Of a stretch of 64,000 nucleotides of DNA, positions 130 through 45,689 are shown in pieces. Within the stretch, counting starts at the first letter, position 1. Every line of letters begins with the position of its first letter. A program made the translations under genes and the position numbers. Source of the DNA: Mesodorylaimus sp. YZB2_4 (lineage: Eukaryota; Nematoda; Enoplea; Dorylaimida; Dorylaimidae); the NCBI GenBank assembly GCA_030248295.1, contig JASANH010000463.1, positions 1 through 64,000 of the forward strand. Direction: 5' to 3'. The notes beneath the pieces are model-generated. The model searched no databases. It had not been told where the DNA came from and saw nothing but the letters and a program-made list of their open reading frames with translations.

Positions 130-3100
130 TCACCGTTCGTCTCTCCAACCGACGTCTGGTGAGACACCCATTTCGGCGTGGACTTGCTCGAATGACTTGC
201 CGATAACAGACCCGATGTCGCATACGAATCGATATGAGAATCGTCTATCAAAGGACTTATGGATAATATTCTTCTTGTAGTAATAACGGATTCCTCGCGT
301 CAGTTTATCAAAATTCATCTACAATGAAAAAGAGTTGTTCATAAAGATTCCGTTCAATACTGTAGCTCCCGCAAAATATAGACGAAAAAAACAGTAAAGA
401 TATACTACTGTAAAATGGGGCACCTGTATGAAAATATGTACATGTAAATATGAAGTGATGATGCTCAAAGCGAAAATAAATATTCCGCCGATTTCTTACA
501 CTCGCACTCTTACAGTCGTAACATTTATGACGGAAATACCTCATCAAGATTTACAACTAGTCAGCATTAAAAAGTTGTCGGAAACTTATGTAGCAGTTAC
601 AGAAGGCCTAGTTTTGTTATCCCTCTTCCGCCTCTCTCACGCCTCATCGTAAGAAATTCGAAATAAGATTATACCAGGTAACTTGGTTTTTTGAATTTCC
701 CGCGTGTCGCTGAAGCCCCTTACAGCATTTCATCCCTTCTTCAGGCCTGTGCGGAAAGCGGAATAAACTGACAACTCATGACTATACTTTCGTCTGTCTT
801 TTCATCTCTTCAGCTGACGACTGAACATATATCTGGACTGATAGGGCTCGCATTCGCCAAAACACAGACGTGTACACCTGTTAGGCCCATACGCACGCCC
901 CGACCCTTTCATCATCCTTTGCCTGTGTAATTAATTCACAAATTTAGAACGGTGCTCGCTCGTCGTACACATCTTCCCACGTGAGGTAGGTGTCATATGA
1001 AATCGGAAACCGCCCCTGCTTCGCTCATAATTGGATACGAAATTCTCGAGAATCTTCCATCGGATTGACAGGAAGCGTCGAAGGATAACGAGCCCATCAT
1101 GAGACGAGAGCGTCCGAAAGTCTGCCCGACACATAGCTCATGTTTTGAAAACAGTAAGTCCCGACAACACTCACATGACTGAGGCCCCGACTTCTCATGC
1201 TTACCATCGGCTTATCCTTCTTGATGCCCCACAATCGGGCCACTTCGTCTTGGTCAATGAATCTGAATTCCCACTCTCGGCCTGTCCACGCAATCACGCC
1301 CTTGTATTTCTTATCCAACAATAAATCCAGAAGAAATCTCCACAGTATAACGGGGTCAGCTAATGAAAGAGACGAGCATGCTGTTGGTTCTAAAGTCACT
1401 TCTTCATTCTTCACAACATGCAACAACCAGTCATCCCAACAGCAGCGCTAAACTTACCAGGCCGATGTTTGGTGATAATAGAACGCTTGGAACTGCGATT
1501 CGAGTTGGCAGGCTCTCGTCGCTCACCATGTACTTCAACGACAGGCAGGGTTCTCAATGCCGAGCATGACCCAACTCCTGCCTGATTCTTCGATTGATGC
1601 TGCTGTTGCGAGATTCCGCTGCTGGCAGATCGATAAGCTGGCACATGGTAAGCTGATTCGCGGCTACTGGTGGGCTGATGAGCGTTGCTGTTGCCGAGCG
1701 AGGGCGGCGATAAGCGATGTCCGACATACGACGGTGCTGCTGGGTTGAAAGGGGAGAAATCTGAGGGCGCGGGCGGGGCGTAGTTGCCAAAAATGGCAGA
1801 ATTTTGTTGGATGACTAGCGGGAGCGATTGAAAGGGGAGTGGAATTTGATGGGAGGGTACTGGGTTTTGGCCAATAACGGGAACTGGTGGAAACGGGTCG
1901 TAGAAAGGTTGAGCTGTCTGTGCAGCTTGAAATGATCGGCGCAGATCTTGGGTAAAAGCGTACGAGTAATTGCCTAAAAATTTTGAGCGCGATGTGAAGA
2001 CGATCATAAAAGATTTTTTAAGTTTCTTTAGCTTCTTAGGTCTGGCTAGTCCGAGAGTGAGTTCGCTAGACAATTAATGATTGAGAAATGTTTATCCTTT
2101 TGTCCGCTGTGCAAACGATTTTCGATTTTGGAGGAAGTGGCCCGATCGAATTAAACAGAAATCAAAAGCGTCAACAATTCTGATTTAAGAAACATATTTG
2201 AATGCTGTGCGTTCATAATTAGAAACCACAATTTGTTGATTTTCTGGCATGTTGGAGGCTCGGAAACGCGTGCTTAATTCGGAGACAATGATTTTCATGA
2301 ATACTATGCCTGATATCTCAATGAGTTTACTGACATTGACGATGAGTGGGAGACGAGAGTCAGGAGTTCAGAAATAAAAGTGACAACGTCTTTCACTGTG
2401 CCATTTTAAAATGATAACAGTTTATTCCTGAAATCAGAAATGATATTGAGAAAAAGAGATATTGATTTTGTGAGTTTCCTACTTTGAACTGGACCCTGAA
2501 TAAAAAGGCCATCGAGGGGAAACGAACTGATTGTGAGATAATGACGTGCAGTAGAATCGAAATCCCACCAAGGGTATGGTATTTTCGTTCTCACAGTCGG
2601 CAAGCATTGCAGAAAACAGTGTCATAAAATGTGTCCATCGGATGTTACTTCGCAGGCCATGTTGCCCCTCGGGCGACCACAAGGAAACCTTGAGGGCACG
2701 GGTCCAAACGAGTCCCTGAGGAACAAGGAAAAGGACTGCCAGTGACTCCTTAGGGCGGGCTAACTTGTTGAAATGGTAGATTTCGTTCCTTTCGTCATTA
2801 TTCCCATAGGAACTTCTTGACGTTGTATACATGGGGCGAGGAATAACAAAACTGGCCTAAAAGGACGACTCGTAGTTGAAGGGTAACTGGGTGTGTGCCA
2901 AATCCATGATGTGGTCGTGGGAGGTTCGATTATTGCTATAGGGGAAAAGGGGCCATGGGGGAAGAAGCCTTACTAAACAAAATTAGCCAGCGAAAATTGT
3001 CCTTTAGCATTAGGCGTCTGGTTGGCTGGTCTAAGCAGGCACAACCGTGCCTGCTGATATTTGTTGGGGGAGGGGTGGTCAGTTGAGGGAATAAATTTCA

Positions 3101-6100
3101 GTCAAACCTAAGTCTTCGACGGGAAGCTGGGAAATACTGTAGTCCGCCGCTCCATTTTGGCTTCACCTAAACTTTTGAGAGATGCCATCGAGTTTTTGGC
3201 AGCGATCCAAAACAGCCCAATGGTATCAGCGGAATTTTTCACCCAGATATAAAACTCAAGAACTATTTCAAAAGAAATTTTTTGAATAGGAAGTTAAAAT
3301 TTGTTATTCAATCTAGTCTTGCCGCGAGGATCTTCGCGTTGCTCGACGAAATGATGACACCCATAAGGACCCACCCCAAGGAAGACTGACAGTACTGGTC
3401 ACCACACCCCGAGATGGACACACTATCCTCGCATAGCGCCTCCAAAGATGCACACAACACATGACCGGAACTCCTGGTGGGCCTTGAGATGTGTAGGAAC
3501 TGCTTGAGGGAAAGAAGTCACCCAAATTTCCCTGCAATGTCCCATTGACGACATTTAGTTCCCCCACTTGGGTCCCCTTCACAGAGGTGGGAGGAACTAT
3601 ATGTGCGTTCAGAGAGTGCTGAGCCTAAGATTGGGTACAGCACCAAGTGATGACAGGAGGGCCACTAGTTAAAGAATAAGAATGGTAATGATAGAAACGT
3701 GGGCAACTGACTTTTTGAAAACTATTCTATTAAACAGCTCGACAACAGGGAAGAAGACAAAAAGAAAACTTTGATTTTAAAATTTTACAGACGTGCATAG
3801 AAAACGCTAGAAGAGTGAGCCAAATTAGCGGGTATATGCGACACCGAAGTAACTAAATAGCACAAATACTTATTACACTCCGTTCATTCTCTTCTTCAAG
3901 GCGACAGACCACGACGATATGACGTGGGGCGGGCCAAATAAAAACTCTACCTAAAACCAGTCAGTCATGCAAATCAAGGTCTAGTGTGGATAACAAAGCT
4001 TACAATTTGTAGTGGGGGAACTATTCGAGGGAAACTTATTATTACTCTCTTAAAAATGAAGGGGGTGGTCACTTCATGTTTTGAGATTTTTACCATCAGT
4101 AGCCCAACTTCCTATCGAATCTTTTCGTCCACTTTCCGATTCAGAAATACCATGACGATTTGGGAACAGCTGGTGTGTCAGTCCACGTAGGTGTTCATCC
4201 AAAATGACTCTGCCAACTAAACCAGGGTAACTATTGAAGGATTTTTCGACTGCGATCAGAAGGGGGACTATTCGAAGGAAAGTCATTTGACATTATACTT
4301 TACTATAGCCAGGCGGGTAGACCGAACTGGAAGGCTTGGAGCCTCAAAGTCTAAATAGGCAAGTTCGTCCCATCCTTGTCTTGTTTCTGTCGAGAAAAAT
4401 CATAAGTTGTAAACATAAATTGGGCCTCCCCGTGGTATCCAAAATCATCTACCTGGGTCTGTTTTCTGTGGATTATTTTACTTTTATGGATTTTTAGTAG
4501 GAGACACTATTCGAGGAAAATTCTGCGATCCTATGGGTCAAGAAAGGAACTAGAATATTGGGAAGATTCGCAGTTCTGACGTCACCCCTTCCCTTTTCAT
4601 CCTGTTATCGATTTGATGAGTGAGAAAAACCATGACGATGTAAACATGGGGTGGGCCATTGAATGTACCCGAAATGACTCTGCCATACTAAACCTAGGTA
4701 ACTATTAAGGTGAATTTCTTAATTTGACAGAAGAAGGGAAATTATTTGAGAGAAAATTGTTGGACCTTCAAGCTAACAAGTAAACGATATTACAGTGGGC
4801 CGACGGACACGCGATAATTTTTCGATAACGATTTTAATTCCCCAATAGGGGGCCAATAGGGAAAATACAAGTGAAATCAGATGTAACAGGTTCACGGAGG
4901 TAATGTATCTAAAAGAAAGGGTGGACCAGAGGATTTTCACTTCAGGTCCAAATGTCACAATTTCTTCCCATCCTAACTTTCAGCGATCGAGAAAGGCCAT
5001 GACGATGTAAACACAGAGTTGGCTTGAAGGACTAGCAAAAAGGACCAGCTTAATTCATTCTTTGAGTTAACACATATTAGAAGGGGTAACTACTGTATAA
5101 GAGGGAAAGCACCTGACCTTCAAGCTTCACGTAAAATGGGGAACCTAGAAGGGGAACGCAATATTGTAAGTAGTTTTGTCTGACTTCACCAAAAATGGTG
5201 CAATTTTGTCCCATCTTTATCGATCGAGAAAGATCATGACGATGTAAACAAGAGGAGCCTTTGCGTGTTCTCCAAAAAAGAAGTCTGCCATGCAAACCCG
5301 GGTGAACTATTTGAAGTGAATAATTTCATTTTGTCGCTCAGAAGGGGAAATGTTGTACTATCTATGGGTCAAGGGAGAGCGGGTAGATGAGGGCTTAATG
5401 ACTACAAACCCTGAAATACCAAAATTTCTACAATTCTTTTTCCTCTCCCGCAAAATATCATGTAAACAAAAGCGTCTACTGGGTATCCAAAAGTATAGAT
5501 AGGCTAAAGTGACACTGGACTAGTTGGTGGTTTGGTTATACAAATGTGGAAACTATTTTAGGGAGGAACACTTCAGAGGAACTTGAATTTTTCAATATGT
5601 TCCTGATTCCAAGTTTCGGTAAGTGACCAGTCCACCAGAAATTGCAGGTGGACAGATTTCTCTCAAAAGTGTCAAAGGATAGTAAACAATAACAGTCCGT
5701 AAAAAACATTATTCATTGACCTAGTGGGTATAATATATATTCTTATTCGAAAAACTAAAATTTCAATCGAGATTTTCTGAGAATACATATATTCTTCGAT
5801 CACGCTCATCCTGCTCAAATAACCTTTTCTTAGATTTAGCATTTTCATTACCGACTTTTTGATTCAGATTCTATCCTAAAACCTTCTTCGACAAAAGGCT
5901 TTTTGAAAGCGCAGAAAATGCTTTTAAAATTGCTTCAATGTCACGTCGTTTTTTTAGGCCAGTGCTTTTTATTGTTCAAATTAGCGACATTTCATTTATG
6001 TTCAAAATTCAAGAAGTTATCAATGATTTTATTTTTTCCTAGTGTGTCCATCTGTAATCTAATGTGTGCCAGTCGGATGATTCACAAAATTTGTTGCCCC

Positions 6101-37660: not shown

Positions 37661-39078
37661 ATCGTAAGGAGCTTTCGCGCATCGCATAAAACCGAAACAC
37701 CGATATTCGACTCTATCAGTCAATAACCAGTGACATCAACCAGGCTGGTTGACGTGCCACCGTTCTCTATGGTATGGCCACCTGCTGTTAACCTTTGTTA
37801 CAGAAGCTTATGGACTACGTAGTCCTTCACGCACATATGTACATACCGTGAGAAACAAAAACTCAAATACCGAGTCCATAGTCTTCTGGTTTACAGCTTG
37901 TACTGTTTGCAGCTCTGCTGGAACCGACAGTACGGAAAGCTGTTGATCGGGCTCCTCATTTACCACATGCACATACTGTATGTCCACCTCGCACGTTTTT
38001 TCACCCCACACAACGCTCCCAAAACATGTCAGTACGGTAAGCGAGCACGTCATACCCATGGTGCTCCAAACAGAACTACCAATACCGTGTTTGCTGGAAA
38101 GTCCAAGCTTGAAGTTTATATCCTAGGGAGATATTCGAGTAATCGCGAAACACTACATACCAAAAGCGAGCGGTAGGAGAGCTTCGTTAGCTGACAGAGG
38201 ACATAATCGAACGTTTCCAGTACACACACAGCTCATAAGCCTACACCCGCTTAGATAATATGCAAAAAATTAACACAGTTTTTCTCGGATATCAGGTGGG
38301 CTGCACAGTAATCGTATTCTGCGTTGTGATTCCATAACCAGCAGTGCAGAGTCGCTTGCAAGAACGAAATGCCTCCAGGATCATGAAACGGCAGCTACTA
38401 CTCAGAATAAAGATCAGATACAACACCAATGTCTTCAAGAGCTCATCCCCACCAGTCAACAATGGATGGTACACTCTGCTGCCACAACTCGAAAACCCAG
38501 GCATGCCATATAACAGCCAAAAATACACAGCAGCTCCTGTCAGTTTCGGAGTAACAGAACATGCCAGGTAAGCGGTGTTGAATGAGATCAGGTACAAGTC
38601 ACCCTGGGCAGTCAGGCTGAATCGGAAAGCATCGAAACAGCTGATTGTCAGACTGAGCAGCATGCTGACACTGAACGCCACCAGCTGGTGCCTCGTCTTC
38701 TTTATATTTTTGTAAACGAACGGTTTGGCCAGGGCGAAAATGCGATCGAGGGTCATGCACAGGGACAGCAGAATCGAGCTACAAAAGAATGTGTTGAATG
38801 TTTATGTGGCAAAGTGTGCTGAGAAGAGCATGAGCGGGTAGCTTCTTCCGAACCACGCCACATTTTTCTGCGTCGGAGCCGGTCGAAGTCGGTCGGGTGT
38901 ACGCTCAGCTCTGCTAGTTTTTTTTCATATACCAGAACATTGAAAAACCTGTTTAATCCTCTTGTTTTTTCTCCCTTAGGGACGGAATTTTCCTATATCT
39001 GTTTGTCCTTAAGCAATCGATTGCTAACGATTTCTCTCCCGCCTTGCTATCCTACAGTGGGAGACGCAACAAGCGGGA

Positions 39079-40576
39079 ATGAGTTCAGCCGAGGAGATCA
39101 CAATCGATAACGGAACCGAGTATCCTGAAAGTATCGAAAATAATGAAAACGTCTTGTCGAAAATTGCCTTCATACCACTGGACTCGAACCACCTTTTTGA
39201 TCGTAATATCAATGATATCATGGTCTCGATGTACAAGAGCAACCCTAAAGAAAGGCAACCGATTTTTGCTTTTCGACATCAAAGATCGATCAAGCTAGTG
39301 TTCGATTCGAAAGAAAGCCGCGACGAAGCTGTGAAAGAGAAATTATCGATTTTTGATCTTCGCGTCCAATTAGAAATACCAGGGCCAGCGATACATCAGA
39401 AGAAGACGATCCATTTGTATGGGTTCCCAGTTGAAGAAAAGCAAAGCGATGTTGAAGCCTGGCTGAAAGAGAAAGAAATCACGGTGGTTTCTGGCCTAAG
39501 ATGGACGACTTGGCCAAATACAGATATACGGAATGGTGGACGATAGCTTGTCGTGTCGGCACTTAGCACCAAAGAAATACCTGTTTTCTGCAATTTCCAA
39601 TCGAAAGCCTAAAAGCGTACGATCCCTGTCACGACTTGGTACCACGGTATGCCAGTCTACTGTCGAAGGTGCAAAGCGAGAGGCCATTTAGCAAAAGACT
39701 GTACCCTGCTGAAAGAACATGATCCGACATCGTATGCGGCCCGTGCTCGAGGAGACTATGGAGGTTTTCGTCCAATGACCAAGACGGCAGAACAAGCGAC
39801 GAGTGAAACTCGAATTCGAAATCAAATAGACGATGAGGGTTTCCCGCCCTTAGCACCTTTGACGAGCCAGTTCCCGATTGTGGCACCACCATCACAAGTC
39901 CAAGAACACACGATCACAGCACACGAGGATACGACGATCGAAAAGACAGCTCTAGGAATCTACCCATTCTACGCCAAAGAATCGCCCTTATCGAATCACT
40001 ATCAATGCTCTTTTACGGTGGAAGGCCAAGTGTACAATACGACCGAACAATATCTTTTCAAAGAGAGGGCGATTAAGGTTGGAGACGAGAAAACGGCAAA
40101 GAAGATTATGAACTCGAAAACGGGCGCCAATGCGGAAAAACATGGCGAATCCGTTGAATGGGATGAGGCCAAATATGGGACATGGGTGACTTTTGCAAAA
40201 GAAAAGCTGTACACAGCCAACATGGCGAAATTTGGTCAGAATCAACACGATCCTGATACGACTTCGACGTATCCTCTTCGAGACGTCACCGAAGCTATTG
40301 GTTGAGGCCAGTCCTACTGACTCCTATTGGGAAGTAGGAATCAAAATAAACGACCCAAACGTCTACGATGTTTCGAAATGGCGTGGGGAAAATATTTTTG
40401 GCAAGCTTTTGACCAATTTGCGAAACGAGATGATGGAGTGGAATGATTTCGAGAAGGAGGCGCAGGAGGTCCGAGAGCGACAAGTATTGGAGGCAAAAAA
40501 ACGAAAACATAGCAGCACGTCAAGTCAGTCGGACTCAGACAATGAATCGGAAGTCCCAAACCCACGTAAGAAATGA
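39079..40576 (+). pseudogene. LINE ORF1: RRM-like region, CCHC zinc knuckle, NADAR domain
   Basis: ORF1 of Tx1-type elements encodes a nucleic-acid-binding protein that coats the element RNA. The first ~155 codons have the layout of the family N-terminus. The frame is broken by TAG at 39544 and TAA near 39610, then continues in the same frame through the zinc knuckle CRRCKARGHLAKDC (CX2CX4HX4C). After a linker of about 90 residues comes a NADAR-like domain (see separate entry). Between about 40290 and 40310 the frame shifts by one and runs to TGA at 40574. The C-terminal tail is charged and Ser-rich, with KKRKH resembling a nuclear localisation signal. The final ATGA overlaps the ORF2 start. 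Confidence 0.85.
39946..40440 (+). other. NADAR (YbiA-like) domain inside LINE ORF1
   Basis: Family-like landmarks appear in order: PFYAKESPLSNHY, a YNTTEQYLF segment (the usual W/Y-x-T-x-E-x-Y/H-F motif), an alpha-helical KAxKI/KIM stretch, LVEASPTDSYW, and GENIFGKLLTNLRNEM (usual GxNxLGxxLxxxRxxL). NADAR proteins act on N-glycosidic or ADP-ribose-type substrates, for example YbiA in riboflavin metabolism. The acidic E in TEQY and the E in LVEAS, both conserved in the family, are present. One frameshift falls between the two halves in this copy. Activity in a retrotransposon protein is not established. Confidence 0.8.
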
Positions 40577-43500
40577 TTTGGCAAACGTCGGGCGACACTA
40601 AACACCGTAAGTTACGTCAGCTTCTGAGCCTTGGCACCAAGTTAGGTCTCGTTTCTTTTTCCTCTGTTATAGAAATAGGGTCCAAAGTAATTTTTGCTAC
40701 ATATAACGCAGCTGGGCTACGGGACAAAATTCCAAAAATATTGTCTATTTTTGCTCCAGTGAATGATGTTGATGTTTTGTGTGTACAAGAGACTCATTTT
40801 CGCAATGCGAAGGAGGCCGCCTTTTTGTAAAGTGTTTTTGAATCTAAATTTAGAATCTCTCATTCCTTCTCGGATGAGCATAGTGCGGGTGTGTGTATTC
40901 TGGTGAATCGCAGAGCTTTGTTTTCGGATATAACTCGAATCACAAGTGTGCCATGTCGAGCAAATACGAGACTAAGGTCTTTCTCTTGCTAGGAGTCTAT
41001 GCACCAGCGCAGGAGCGGAAGGCGTTTTTTGTGAGATTGTATGAGACGGTTTTACAAAAATTCAGGTACTATGATGCGTGTGTCTGCTTAGGAGATTTTA
41101 ATTTCGTGGAATATAGGTAGCTGGACCGCAGTCATCACGCGCACTACCCTGGGGTGGGACTGAAAGAGTTTCGAGTTATCTCTTCAAAATTCAAATTGCA
41201 TGATATCTTTCGGGCTCATCATGCAAAAGCCAGGGAATTCTCTCATCTTGCCCACAGCATCAAGACGCAGCGACTTGATAGAATTTACGGCTCTGAAAAC
41301 GTGGTAGCATCATATGTAAAACATAAGTTTATGAATACGGGCCTGTCAGAATATAAAATTTTTGAACTCGAACTTAATTTTTTATTTGCTAATGTAAGGA
41401 GGGGTCCTTCTTACTGGAAACTCGATGTAGACTTCCTATTGAAGGACCGGTTTTTGCAGGAGTGCATCAGGGATAAGCTTCAGGCGTTAAAAACTATGTT
41501 GACTAACGCATCCGATGAGGATGTGCTGGAGTAATGGGAGGAGTGTAAACATGAAATAGGCATAACGTGTAAAGGTCGTAAGAAAACGATGGATACAGAA
41601 AACAGAAAATACCGCTTATGGCTAGAAAAGGAGTTAGAGGGTGCTAAAAGGCTATTAGGCTTGCACCCCACGAGTGAGATGTTGAAAGCAGAATTCTTGG
41701 ATGTTCGTGAGAGGCTCAAAGCTTTTGATCGCGAGGAAGTAAGGAAGAGGTTAATGAAAACGCATTACAGGGACCTGGCAGCTGACCAGTTTACATTAAC
41801 AACGGCCAAGTTGATGCAAAAAAACTCGGCTGAGGGTAGGACAATTTATGCTATCCGTGGGGAGGATGGGACCTTGTACGGAGACCACCTGGAAGTCATA
41901 CAGGAAATAAGAAGGCAGTACGCGTGTTTGTTTACTAGTACAGGATCGATTGACGGGGAGGCCGCTGATCGCTTCTTGGGACAGGCTCCTTATTGCTTGG
42001 CAGATGACGAAGACAGGGAGGAACTAGGCGAGGAGATTGACGAAGATGAAGTACGGACTGCGATGAGCACATTCAAGAAGAAGAAGTCGCCAGGCAGCGA
42101 CGGCCTGCCAATCGAATTTTACAGTCTTTTCTCGGCTGACATAGGATGGATACTGAGTAAGGTTTACGGGGCCTCATCAAGGCTGGGCGTTCTCCCTCCC
42201 AGCTGCTACTTGGGCATTATTTCGCAAGTGTGCAAGGGGGAAGGGGATAAGGCGGAAAGGTCTAACTGGCGGCCACTGACAATGTTAAATGTGGACTATA
42301 AGATTCTGGCAAAAGTTCTGGTCATGAGACTGAGGAAAGTGATGGGAAAGGTGGTCCATCCGGACCAGACCTGCTCGGTGCCTGGAAGAGACATAAGAGA
42401 CGGGGTCTTGACCCTCTACAATGCTGTATAGTACATCAGTGAGACTGGGGCGGAAGGCATGCCTCTTTCTGTGAACCATATGACAGCCTTCGACATAGTC
42501 GAATGGGAATATATGGATAGAGTATTCGTATACTTTGGGCTAGGACCAGTCTTCCAGAACTGGATTCGACTGATCTATAAACTGGGGAGGGTCTCATCAG
42601 CGGTGCAGGTGAATGGATTCATATCATCTCCCTTTACTCCAAGCATAGGAATCCGGCAGGGGTGCCCTTTGTCGGCCTATCTGTACGTGCTCGGCTCAGA
42701 GACAGTCACCAATTTCATTAGGAGGGACGCAGCTGTTAAAGGATTAGACATATTAGGACGGGAGCTAAAAATCAGCAATTTTGCTGATGATACCAACTTT
42801 GTGGTGGCGGATACTGCCTCTATCAAACGCATTTTTGAAGTATACAAAACATTTAGGAATACCTCGGGCGCCACGCTGAAAGAGGCAAAGCCAAAATTTT
42901 ACCACTAGGTGCGACAGCAGCGAACAGGACGGGGATAGAGGAGGATCTGTCCAAGTATTTGGTCCAGCAGTTAAAAGTGTATGGATTTTGGATTCGCAGC
43001 ACTGGCATGGAGATAGCGGAAAACTGGGCAGCTGTAAGAGATCATATAGGGACCTTGAATAGTAGGAGTCCGCACTGCGAGATATCATATTTTGGGAGAG
43101 TCCATGTTCTGAACACCTATTTTCTGTCCAAAGTGCGTACTTAGCATCGATTATTGCGCCGGATGCTGATTTCCAGAGTTTTGTTGAGAAACATACGGAT
43201 GCTTATTTCTGGCATCCATCCAAATCTAACATGGTGAACAAATTAATTTTAAAACGAAGGAGGGACCTCGGAGGGGTTAACTATCCAGACGTGAATACCA
43301 AGGTGCTAGCTTTCCGATTAATGCTTCTTCTACGCAGACTGACTGCACAGCAGGATGCTGCGTGGAGTGCGTGCTTTGATTTTTTCTATGATAGAGTGCG
43401 ATATGTGAGCCTGAACCAATTGAACAACATAGTGGTGCCCCAGCTGTACAGGGATATACGCAGGGCTGGAAAGACTGCCAAATTTAGCTTACTGGATCAA

Positions 43501-44130
43501 GGCGCTGTTGGATTGGATGCAAGAACATATCCAATGAAACACGTCAAGACCAAGCTGCTGTATGAACACATGATGGAAAAGAGGGGGGGGGGGGTAAAGC
43601 TGCGCTAGCAATGCAGGAGTATTGGAAGGGAAAGTTAGGAAACGAGCATATCGACTTTAGGGCATACTGGAGGCTCAATAGGACCAAGCACGTCGATACA
43701 CTACGCTCTACTGTATAAGCCATTGCACACAAGAAGCAAAGTCTCGCACTTTGCACCGGAGGTTGATTCACACTGCAAGTACTGTAAGAAGCAGGGAACA
43801 GATAAGCACTAGAAATGGCTCGCTCCGCTCGCAATTTTCTAGTTGCTCGCTTCGCTCGCGGAAGGTAGTAATCAGTGGTGGCTTGTATGGGGGTAATTGT
43901 GCGTGCGCAATGCAGTTGGTTTTCAAGAAAGATCACCAACTCACCTCCACAGGAAGGAAGGATGCGAACAAGTTCTCATTGCGTGCACATGTCAAATTAT
44001 TACGCATGGTTGTTGGCATTAGATTAAAGATAGAGCATGCCAGAACGCGTCAAAAGAAAAATAAGGTGTAGACAAGAGGTCCGTTCGTTTCTCACCGACG
44101 GTGTGAAGGCAGTGTTAGCATGGCGCGTTG

Positions 44131-44653
44131 TTATGAACACGTTCGACGATCTCGCGACCGTGTGTCTTCATCGTATTGGTCGTCGAGAAACATGCGCACG
44201 GTGTACGATTCTCCATCCGTTTTCAGTGACAGGAACTTGAACGGACATGGACACGGAAGGCCGGCATTGAAGTCTTGCTCATTGAAATAAGCGATTACTT
44301 TTTCTTCACGTCGCATTGATAAAAGCAGTTTCTTGAGCTGAGGGGAAATGTATAAATTTGGAATCATTCCGATATCCTTCGTCAAGCTAGTCGTTTTGAT
44401 TATGATAGTATACTTTTGAAATTCGTGAGGATTCCTTATCGCTGGATATGATTGAAATCGTCGCTGGTTTATGCAATGAGTGAAGAGTACGAAATGCAGC
44501 AAGTTCTTTTAGCGGCTTTGGCGAGAAGCTTTTCTTGTCATTCGAGTGTTGCCTGTAGACAACGAAATGAGTCCATTTGTATTCGTAATCTTTCAAGTCA
44601 GCCGTGAATAAAGCCATTTTTAAAGGTAAAAATGAAGCTGGCGTATTATTCAA
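44131..44653 (-). pseudogene. Unknown coding-like remnant inside the Helitron
   Basis: Two overlapping minus-strand frames (44653-44387 and 44502-44131) each have protein-like composition and appear to be one frame-shifted gene. The first begins with ALFTADLKDYEYKWTHF; the second contains IPNLYISPQLKKLLLSMRRE. I do not recognise a family. It lies downstream of the helicase end and upstream of the Helitron 3' terminus, so it could be a captured host gene piece or an accessory Helitron gene. Confidence 0.35.
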
Positions 44654-44916
44654 ATTTCTGTCTTGGGCCTTGTATCTATTTGCAGATCAAATGATGCAGT
44701 AATACCGTATGCGAACAAGAGACAGCGTAGTTACCCGGTAGACTACAGTACGGTAGAGTGCGAGTTCTGTTGCGGCGTAAAGTGTGCATATCTGTACAGA
44801 GACACATGAAGCAGTTAGATGACCCGAAGAAGCAATATCCCGAAACAGGAAACTCAGTCAATGGGCACACTTTACACACATAAACCGCATGGAAAGGAAC
44901 AGTGCACTCACGTACA

Positions 44917-45117
44917 CTACTTTAAAACCTGCTTGAAAACGATGTTGTCGGTAACCGTCACACCATTGCTAGTACCTTGTCGGGAACCTTCTACCACTTG
45001 AATCTTAAGGGCGTCGAAAGACCGAACTCGTGAACAGCCGACGTAAAACTGGCCATGCGTGAATACGGGACTTCTCAAGTAAACCCCGCATCGCAAGCAT
45101 ATCTCCTGCGCTGCAAA
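44917..45117 (-). pseudogene. Helitron Rep/helicase, C-terminal fragment
   Basis: Read on minus, the frame shows GVYLRSPVFTHGQFYVGCSR followed by VRSFDALKI, the end of a superfamily 1B (PIF1-like) helicase, whose usual form is GVYLPEPVFTHGQLYVALSR. The fragment covers only the last helicase motifs and a short tail ending in a stop. The nuclease and most helicase motifs are missing, so it is non-functional. Confidence 0.8.
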
Positions 45118-45689
45118 CATGGTTTTGCAGTCAGCACAGCTGTGCATATGGTATGCGAGGGCTGACTTCCAGGCGGAGGACAAGATAGTGGACTTGTGGG
45201 ATGCACTGCGGAGGAGGTTGAAAGTTTTTACTAAACGAGCCAGGTGCATTCTGTCACCGCGCATGTTCCAGGATTATTTTGCAGGATTATTTTGCAGAGC
45301 CGTCTCTCGTGAATTTGTTGGAGTAAAGCGTTAAAAAAGCAATTGAAAAAAAAAGAAAAGAGAAAAGAACAGAAAAAAAAGGCCACACCCTCGTTCTTTC
45401 CTCCGCCCGACCACCATTTCAGCGTGGCAATGAACGCGAGGTGAGAGAACGTCTCTCCAGTCTCGCTGATGGCGTTGAACACTTGATACATGTAAGCCGA
45501 TTCAGATTTATACTGCTTGTAGAATGCCGTCAGCAGGATGAGGTGGGCTGGAGGGTACGCGATCAGATAGATGGGATACATAAACGGGTAGCTGACGAAT
45601 CTTGAGTGGGTAACAATGTTTTTAAAGGACCCTGATTCCAAGCAAATGGGCTGACTGAGTGGTAGTGTTTGTCATTCTTTAGGATCCGC

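What the first reader, a model, noticed from the sequence alone, without database searches (positions are those of the whole stretch)
39946..40440. NADAR domain carried by a LINE ORF1 protein, behind a zinc knuckle
Seen: within one LINE ORF1, a CX2CX4HX4C knuckle is followed by TEQYLF, LVEASPTDSYW and GENIFGKLL, in the order found in NADAR (YbiA-like) proteins. Known: NADAR domains act in NAD/ADP-ribose and riboflavin-linked chemistry, and ADP-ribosylation is used in antiviral defence. Inference: the retrotransposon may use it to remove a host ADP-ribose-type or other N-glycosidic modification from nucleic acid or protein, that is, as a counter-defence, or merely as a nucleotide-binding fold. 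I do not know whether this fusion has been described.
Basis: partly seen in the sequence, partly recalled or inferred. Interest (0 to 1): 0.8.

Follow-up and report, generated by a model that had tools for sequence, protein, structure and literature searches.

The report
NADAR enzyme domain in nematode LINEs
A family of jumping genes in a roundworm genome carries, in its first protein, a well-preserved copy of an enzyme domain whose relatives strip ADP-ribose from DNA bases; the same kind of fusion has been mentioned once before, in oysters, and what it does for the element is not known.

Summary
The window copy is a decayed LINE: its ORF1 (about 39079-40576) holds a CCHC knuckle and a significant NADAR match (PF08719, in two frames split by a frameshift), followed by broken EN-RT pieces. 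It is not a one-off. The genome, a nematode judging by its cuticle collagens, holds several subfamilies. Five fetched copies have both ORFs open, and five of five ORF1s scanned match NADAR at E 1.1e-27 to 7.6e-33. NADAR is the best-conserved part of ORF1, somewhat less so than EN and RT, and is under purifying selection, although dS is saturated. The YbiA-type active-site residues are kept. None of 21 more distant LINE RTs of this genome has a NADAR upstream. Four of four NADAR-less copies checked are 5'-truncated. The fusion is already in print, in one sentence, for Tx1 LINE ORF1s of the Pacific oyster (PMC12477816): a new member of a known, barely studied kind. Best reading: ORF1p brings a working N-glycosidase to element RNA, cDNA or target DNA, ADP-ribosyl-guanine being the best candidate substrate. 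Counter-defence is untested.

The parts
39079..40576 (+). ORF1 remnant of the LINE (first ATG to stop), interrupted by two stops and one frameshift
   Evidence: tblastn with five ORF1s of other copies, 39031-40573, 39-48% identity for the first pieces; frames
39154..39546 (+). ORF1 N-terminal region, conserved in the subfamilies compared; RRM suspected but not shown
   Evidence: aligned region of other copies; profile search gives La RRM only at E 0.12; AF2 single-sequence pLDDT 41
39661..39702 (+). CCHC zinc knuckle CRRCKARGHLAKDC
   Evidence: zf-CCHC 22.4 bits, E 1.2e-4
39976..40248 (+). NADAR domain, N-terminal two thirds (holds the E of TEQYLF and the W of GTW)
   Evidence: PF08719 45.4 bits, 45.7 bits
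40259..40432 (+). NADAR domain, C-terminal third in another frame (LVEASPTDSYW, GENIFGKLL)
   Evidence: PF08719 50.6 bits, 48.6 bits
40433..40576 (+). charged C-terminal tail of ORF1
   Evidence: ORF list; aligned to other copies
40642..41361 (+). ORF2 endonuclease (APE-type) region, broken; end point computed from the alignment to L019's ORF2
   Evidence: tblastn with ORF2 of other copies; Exo_endo_phos in three other ORF2s
42252..43135 (+). ORF2 reverse transcriptase region, broken
   Evidence: RVT_1 in frames 41535-42431 and 42432-42908; 70% identity to an open copy's RT over 42252-42899; further piece to 43135
43120..43809 (+). ORF2 C-terminal region, first part
   Evidence: tblastn
45089..45292 (+). 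end of ORF2, after about 1.2 kb of extra sequence
   Evidence: tblastn, 44-60% identity
45332..45380 (+). A-rich stretch, likely the 3' tail
   Evidence: sequence printed; other copies also end in A-rich tails

Best explanation
This is a decayed copy of a two-ORF, L1-type (L1/Tx1-like) LINE lineage whose ORF1 protein is: conserved N-terminal region, CCHC knuckle, YbiA-type NADAR domain, charged tail. Shown here: the domain is present, significant, shared by several subfamilies, selectively maintained, and keeps most of the residues that known NADARs use to bind ADP-ribose and cleave the glycosidic bond. Inferred: the domain is a working N-glycosidase. ORF1 proteins are thought to coat the element RNA and accompany it to the target site, so the knuckle and NADAR would be held on the RNA, the cDNA or the exposed target-site strand. 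There it would remove an ADP-ribose (or similar N-glycosidic adduct) from a base, guanine being the best-supported candidate, that would otherwise block reverse transcription or second-strand synthesis. My estimates: active enzyme 0.8; substrate on nucleic acid 0.45; host-made adduct, i.e. true counter-defence, about 0.22-0.25.
For: Five fetched copies have both ORFs open stop to stop, ORF1 485-570 aa and ORF2 1190-1201 aa. NADAR E 1.1e-27 to 7.6e-33 in 5 of 5 ORF1s scanned (three of them from copies with both ORFs open); zf-CCHC listed in 4 of 5, above its cut-off in 1. Active site, mapped on 8BAU (P. nicotianae NADAR with ADP-ribose) and recounted in nine copies: E43, K75, G78, D130, W133 9 of 9; K50 is K in 8 and R in 1 (K-to-R is tolerated in E. 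coli C7 NADAR); W89 8 of 9; E125, the YbiA-type catalytic glutamate, 8 of 9. The W89 and E125 exceptions are in broken copies (L023, L014). GY94 by my own script: NADAR omega 0.018-0.084, 2dlnL 76-110 against omega=1 in 6 of 6 subfamily pairs; protein identity 57-70% for NADAR, 42-51% for the N-terminal part with the knuckle, 64-71% EN, 71-73% RT. NADARs including eukaryotic members hydrolyse ADP-ribosyl-guanine in DNA (PMC11543638 passages; PMC11125620 discussion). Guanine-N2 DNA ADP-ribosylation exists in animals, among them six clams (PMC11209040 passages), and the other LINEs reported with NADAR are from a bivalve. PARP1/2 act at human L1 integration sites (PMC8535693 passages).
Against: No activity was measured. 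dS is saturated (3.5-16 in the NADAR pairs), so omega values are not reliable as numbers, and the N-terminal part, EN and RT give omegas as low, so low omega marks the protein as a whole and not NADAR alone. No guanine ADP-ribosyltransferase is known in this host: DarT 0 matches, ART PF01129 0 matches with a silent control, pierisin-like not searched. R79 and R93 of 8BAU, which bind the pyrophosphate, are kept in 0 of 9 LINE copies. Human L1 is helped, not hindered, by PARP1/2, so ADP-ribosylation at the target site need not be hostile. E. coli YbiA failed to rescue from the toxin YarT although another YbiA did, so residue conservation does not fix the substrate.
Confidence: 0.45

Rival explanations
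1. The NADAR is a binding module: it keeps the fold and pocket to hold ADP-ribose-marked proteins or nucleic acid (for example PARP-marked nicks) and so guides the RNP to target sites, without needing catalysis.
For: PARP1 and PARP2 gather at L1 nicks and help retrotransposition (PMC8535693 passages). PARP catalytic-domain matches exist in this genome (10, exon pieces included). One of nine aligned copies lacks the catalytic glutamate, though that copy is broken.
Against: The catalytic glutamate is kept in 8 of 9 copies. Two pyrophosphate-binding arginines of 8BAU are kept in none. Known NADARs act on N-glycosidic links to bases or small molecules; I know of none that reads poly-ADP-ribose (recalled).
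Confidence: 0.2
2. It processes the element's RNA or small NAD-derived molecules (RNA repair, ADP-ribose derivatives, NAD-linked RNA ends) rather than an ADP-ribosylated base.
For: RNA processing is the guess made for the Ectocarpus and oyster elements (PMC12477816 passage) and, for RNA repair and soluble ADP-ribose derivatives, for viral NADARs (PMC9503650 passages). Phage relatives are annotated YbiA-like in several records.
Against: No RNA ligase or Nudix partner appears among the Pfam matches of the ORFs scanned. The direct biochemistry in the passages seen concerns guanine adducts and riboflavin intermediates.
Confidence: 0.2
3. It copies or disturbs the host's SNA-3, a nematode spliced-leader trans-splicing protein with three NADAR domains.
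For: SNA-3 is essential in C. elegans and its NADAR residues matter (PMC9303266 passages). A 768-aa open frame with three NADAR stretches, an SNA-3 candidate, is in this genome (L028).
Against: The LINE domains are split from the C4, C230 and C22 host domains with support 95/94, but the branches are long, 12 of 18 inner branches are open, and no real SNA-3 sequence was in the tree. NADAR LINEs also occur in oyster, whereas SNA-3 is reported to have no homologue outside nematodes.
Confidence: 0.05
4. A selectively neutral passenger captured once.
For: The window copy itself is dead.
Against: Purifying selection in 6 of 6 subfamily pairs. I found no ORF1 with an assembled, unrearranged 3' part that lacks the domain, though eight partial places were not fetched.
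Confidence: 0.02

Closest known systems
NADAR-bearing Tx1 LINE ORF1s of Crassostrea gigas (PMC12477816, passages seen)
   Same: YbiA-family NADAR in ORF1 of a two-ORF LINE
   Different: Another phylum. The oyster sequences (Repbase) could not be compared here; the passage reports them as divergent hits to the Gypsy NADARs, without further analysis.
Gypsy LTR elements of Ectocarpus with NADAR at the N-terminus of Pol (PMC12477816)
   Same: Retrotransposon with a conserved YbiA-family NADAR
   Different: Other element class, other protein (Pol)
Esterase-type ORF1 of non-LTR retrotransposons (PMC3905857, abstract and outline seen)
   Same: A hydrolase domain built into an ORF1 protein
   Different: SGNH lipolytic esterase with a coiled coil; binds phospholipids, not oligo(A) RNA
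DarT1-associated and YbiA-type NADAR hydrolases (PMC11543638, PMC11125620; passages and one section seen)
   Same: Sequence profile match and the residues E43, K50, K75, W89, E125, D130, W133
   Different: Fused to a LINE ORF1 and a zinc knuckle; R79 and R93 not kept; activity unknown
Nematode SNA-3 (PMC9303266, passages seen)
   Same: NADAR in a nematode RNA-linked protein
   Different: Three domains in a host gene; candidate SNA-3-like domains of this genome fall elsewhere in the tree, with long branches
Human LINE-1 ORF2p (8sxt, 8uw3)
   Same: One of the ORF2s aligns over its residues 16-894, E 2e-66
   Different: ORF1 of another make-up (human L1 ORF1p: coiled coil, RRM, CTD; PMC4120745 passage)

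Membership tests
NADAR superfamily (PF08719) | Profile match above the curated cut-off | tested here: met
   45.4 and 50.6 bits in the window's two frames against 35.1; 97.8-114.5 bits in 5 of 5 other ORF1s scanned
NADAR, YbiA subfamily | Catalytic glutamate at the E125 position (aspartate or histidine in other subfamilies) | tested here: met
   E in 8 of 9 copies, the ninth a broken copy with G; E also in the window copy
NADAR superfamily | NADAR fold | not tested
   No structure was predicted for the domain; sequence profile match to 8BAU (E 2.1e-16) and 2B3W (E 1.5e-10) only
NADAR superfamily | N-glycosidase or de-ADP-ribosylation activity | not testable with these tools
   needs biochemistry
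LINE, L1/Tx1-type | ORF2 with APE endonuclease and reverse transcriptase | tested here: met
   Exo_endo_phos and RVT_1 in 3 of 3 ORF2s scanned; one ORF2 searched against solved structures, best match human L1 ORF2p
LINE | A-rich 3' end, shared 5' end, 5'-truncated copies | tested here: met
   5' ends shared by 3 of 3 copies of one subfamily and 2 of 3 of another, A-rich tails; 4 of 4 short copies checked are 5'-truncated
LINE | Target-site duplications | tested here: inconclusive
   8-base candidates next to the ends in L020 and L015, nothing convincing in the other 4 of 6 copies
Tx1 clade as named in Repbase | RT phylogeny with Tx1 reference elements | not testable with these tools
   no Tx1 reference sequence held
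ORF1 Type I (RRM plus CCHC) | CCHC knuckle | tested here: met
   zf-CCHC 22.4 bits, above cut-off, in the window; 28.6, 16.0, 19.3 and 19.3 bits in four of five other ORF1s, one above cut-off
ORF1 Type I (RRM plus CCHC) | RRM upstream | tested here: inconclusive
   La RRM only at E 0.12 by profile; AF2 single-sequence model pLDDT 41
SNA-3 | Three NADAR domains in one protein | tested here: not met
   one NADAR stretch in 5 of 5 ORF1s scanned
SNA-3 | NADAR domains of the SNA-3 branch | tested here: inconclusive
   split from candidate SNA-3-like host domains at 95/94, with long branches and no real SNA-3 sequence

The most novel reading that the evidence does not exclude
A LINE retrotransposon carries its own de-ADP-ribosylase on its ORF1 protein, to erase ADP-ribose that a host enzyme puts on guanines of the element's nucleic acid: an eraser that would point to an undescribed animal defence based on ADP-ribosylating DNA or RNA, in nematodes and bivalves alike.
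Probability: 0.22. Interest if true: 0.85.

Novelty: new member of a known kind. Interest (0 to 1): 0.52.

Why it matters
The roles of NADARs in eukaryotes, animals included, are called unclear in PMC11125620 (discussion). A mobile element that keeps an active-looking NADAR under selection across subfamilies only 57-70% alike in the domain suggests that some N-glycosidic, ADP-ribose-type chemistry touches LINE replication in animals. With several open copies in one genome, a structural template (8BAU) and a ready assay (guanine-ADP-ribose DNA), the question becomes directly testable.

Tried and rejected
SNA-3 mimicry: tested by tree, not supported but not excluded. One-off capture: rejected. 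Domain loss in some copies: 4 of 4 NADAR-less RT copies that I fetched for this are 5'-truncated; the other 35 of the 39 tabulated family RTs without a NADAR upstream were not checked one by one. Of six ORF1-N places 99-100% identical to the query, three lack a NADAR match: two end at a contig end (C946, C313) and one is rearranged at the start of the domain (C250). Host DarT: none found (the control rang in one genome). ART PF01129: no match, but no control rang, so this says nothing. RRM: not shown. Search for relatives of the LINE NADAR in bacterial and viral contig collections: pattern hits only, none confirmed. Phage records do hold relatives: 670 records, 33-37% identity in the 15 rows listed. 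Organism: the C. elegans SL1 22-mer gave no match with up to 2 mismatches, and SL2 gave none with a silent control. The species is not established, only that it looks like a nematode (133 cuticle-collagen matches; the 14 control genomes did not ring, but those that other calls name are bacteria, and that this domain is nematode-specific is recalled). An apparent 22,320-aa frame at C196 is probably an effect of undetermined bases: the stretch read there holds a run of about 1000 N.

Counts and what was dropped: of 152 matches I tabulated 78 (57 at 55% identity or more, 21 at 31-38%); the rest are shorter pieces, and says that more matches are not listed. Of 44 ORF1-N rows, I tabulated 37; 7 second pieces were left out. 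The 75 NADAR matches include host genes and another multi-copy family, and are said by the tool to be lower bounds.

Full report
What is in the window. At 39079-40576 (+) lies the remnant of a LINE ORF1, followed by broken ORF2 pieces up to 45292 and an A-rich stretch at 45332-45380. A CCHC knuckle sits at 39661-39702 (zf-CCHC E 1.2e-4). NADAR (PF08719) matches 39976-40248 and 40259-40432 in two frames, both above the curated cut-off. This copy has two in-frame stops before the NADAR part and a frameshift inside it. Its ORF2 has six in-frame stops in the pieces aligned to one other ORF2, frame changes, and about 1.2 kb of extra sequence before its last part. It is 39-48% identical in the first ORF1 piece and 63-68% in the longest ORF2 piece to the subfamilies compared, so it is probably a further subfamily; its decay suggests an old insertion.

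The genome. The window lies in a 145-Mb assembly. It has 133 matches to the cuticle collagen N-terminal domain, which I recall as typical of nematodes. None of the 14 control genomes rings, but those that other calls name are bacteria, so this is no test among animals. The species is not established.

The element elsewhere in the genome. One search gives 75 NADAR matches in all, host genes included. Among the 20 regions fetched, five carry a LINE with both ORFs open: L010 (493 and 1201 aa), L015 (570 and 1196), L016 (552 and 1196), L019 (485 and 1190) and L020 (502 and 1190). Five ORF1s from what I count as five subfamilies all match NADAR at E 1.1e-27 to 7.6e-33; two of these five come from copies whose ORF2 is broken. 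zf-CCHC is listed for four of the five, above its cut-off in one. Three of three ORF2s scanned match APE endonuclease and RT. One ORF2 aligns to human L1 ORF2p over its residues 16-894 (E 2e-66), whereas R2 reaches only E 2e-9: an L1-type LINE. Copies of one subfamily are 98-99% identical over 5.6-5.9 kb and those of another 99.5% over about 5.5 kb (four pairs compared). Most share 5' ends (5 of 6) and they finish in A-rich tails. So the lineage moved recently.

Is the domain a fixed part? Of 57 tabulated family RTs (at least 55% identical), 18 have a NADAR match 1.8-2.0 kb upstream. Of 21 more distant RTs (31-38% identical), none has. The three of those that I looked at have a frame of 238-253 aa in the ORF1 position without knuckle or NADAR motifs to the eye; two of the three were scanned and gave no Pfam match. 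Starting from ORF1's N-terminal region, 26 of 37 tabulated places have a NADAR match just downstream. Three near-identical copies without one run off a contig (two) or are rearranged at the start of the domain (one). The remaining eight are partial matches that I did not fetch. Four RT copies without NADAR, fetched for this purpose, are all 5'-truncated: three inside ORF2 and one at the last 13 residues of ORF1. I found no intact ORF1 of this lineage that lacks the domain.

Selection. Between subfamilies, the NADAR part is 57-70% identical, against 42-51% for the N-terminal part with the knuckle, 26-45% for the linker, 28-39% for the tail, 64-71% for EN and 71-73% for RT. A pairwise codon model (own script) gives omega 0.018-0.084 for NADAR, with twice the log-likelihood difference against omega=1 of 76-110 in 6 of 6 pairs. 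Synonymous change is saturated, so the omega values are rough. Other parts of ORF1 and ORF2 also give low omegas; the linker and tail give much weaker tests, and two of five tail pairs are not significant. What sets NADAR apart within ORF1 is its protein conservation.

Active site. The chain of 8BAU, which PMC11543638 lists as the P. nicotianae NADAR-ADP-ribose complex, aligns to the LINE profile at E 2.1e-16. Its chain numbering runs two ahead of the paper's; I infer this from matching the residues named to the alignment. In nine LINE copies, E43, K75, G78, D130 and W133 are invariant; K50 is K in eight and R in one; W89 and E125 are kept in eight each, the two exceptions being in broken copies. 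K-to-R at that site keeps activity in the E. coli C7 enzyme. E125 is what marks the YbiA subfamily. R79 and R93, which bind the pyrophosphate in 8BAU, are kept in none. The window copy itself still has the two glutamates, the D and the two Ws, with R at the K50 site.

Where the domain comes from. In a tree of 21 domains, the seven LINE domains form one group (100/100). They sit among YbiA-type domains (a host gene on C18, four phages, 8BAU, YbiA) and the second multi-copy family, apart from the host domains of C4, C230 and C22 (95/94). Twelve of 18 inner branches are unresolved, and the host domains have long branches. By BLAST within this small set, the nearest are phage YbiA-like proteins and the C18 host gene, about 30-39% identical. 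The source, host or viral, is not resolved.

What it most likely does. Shown: a conserved, selected, active-looking NADAR is part of ORF1p. From literature passages: NADARs remove ADP-ribose from guanine in DNA, also in eukaryotic members (PMC11543638; PMC11125620); guanine-N2 ADP-ribosylation of DNA exists in butterflies and clams (PMC11209040); PARP1/2 gather at L1 nicks (PMC8535693). Inferred: ORF1p carries the enzyme onto the element's RNA, cDNA or target-site strand and cleans an N-glycosidic adduct there. Whether the adduct is a host weapon is open. DarT was not found, PARP matches were, and the ART search had a silent control.

What is known. In the held library (20 of 104 papers listed, 15 of 15, 9 of 9, 1 of 1, 1 of 1), I saw one paper that reports such fusions: PMC12477816 finds NADAR in Gypsy Pol of Ectocarpus and, in one sentence, in ORF1 of several Tx1 LINE families of Crassostrea gigas (passages seen). 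The five ORF1 types listed in PMC4120745 (passages seen) name none with NADAR. Enzyme domains in ORF1 have a precedent in the esterase type (PMC3905857, abstract seen). The present case is therefore a new member of a known, little-studied kind. What it adds is a second animal phylum, several recently mobile subfamilies, and evidence of selection and of a largely intact active site.

Noticed in passing
L038 (G000:C289:5500-10500) 2728-3226 and 3362-3739; L039 (C621) 2353-3235; NADAR-like frames also in L040 (C444); probably C929, C765, C491, C936, C134, C174, C47, C358 (not inspected): A second multi-copy NADAR family. In two of three fetched regions a NADAR frame (Pfam E 9.9e-12 and 1.4e-15) is followed by a frame with GDSxxRNI and GTNDLV motifs that looks SGNH-hydrolase-like by eye (no Pfam match). 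No LINE RT was noticed beside it. In L038 a UCH-type peptidase frame lies upstream (E 1.1e-9). May be another mobile or amplified unit.
   Followed up: partly
L028 (G000:C4) 3477-5780 +: A 768-aa open frame with three NADAR stretches, a candidate for the nematode trans-splicing protein SNA-3; not compared with a real SNA-3 sequence.
   Followed up: no
L026 (G000:C230) 2105-4622 +: Two adjacent open frames with two NADAR stretches each: another host multi-NADAR gene or gene pair.
   Followed up: no
L027 (G000:C18:333500-340500): A host gene in exon-like pieces with two YbiA-type NADAR domains that keep the LVEA..D..W motif; among the host domains compared, the nearest to the LINE ones.
   Followed up: partly
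PMC7853720 (passage): In Caenorhabditis tropicalis, a Medea gene-drive haplotype carries duplicated genes homologous to C. elegans genes with NADAR and YbiA-like domains: another link between nematode NADARs and selfish DNA.
   Followed up: no
window 43810-45088: About 1.2 kb of sequence without a match to ORF2 of other copies splits the end of ORF2; probably a nested insertion.
   Followed up: no
window 38292-38801 -: A frame with a rhodopsin-type 7TM receptor match (PF00001, E 5e-5, below cut-off) just upstream of the LINE.
   Followed up: no
L009 (G000:C120) 947-1390 - and 2299-2745 +: Two NADAR-LINE pieces in opposite orientation about 0.9 kb apart at the start of a contig; inverted arrangement or assembly effect.
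   Followed up: no
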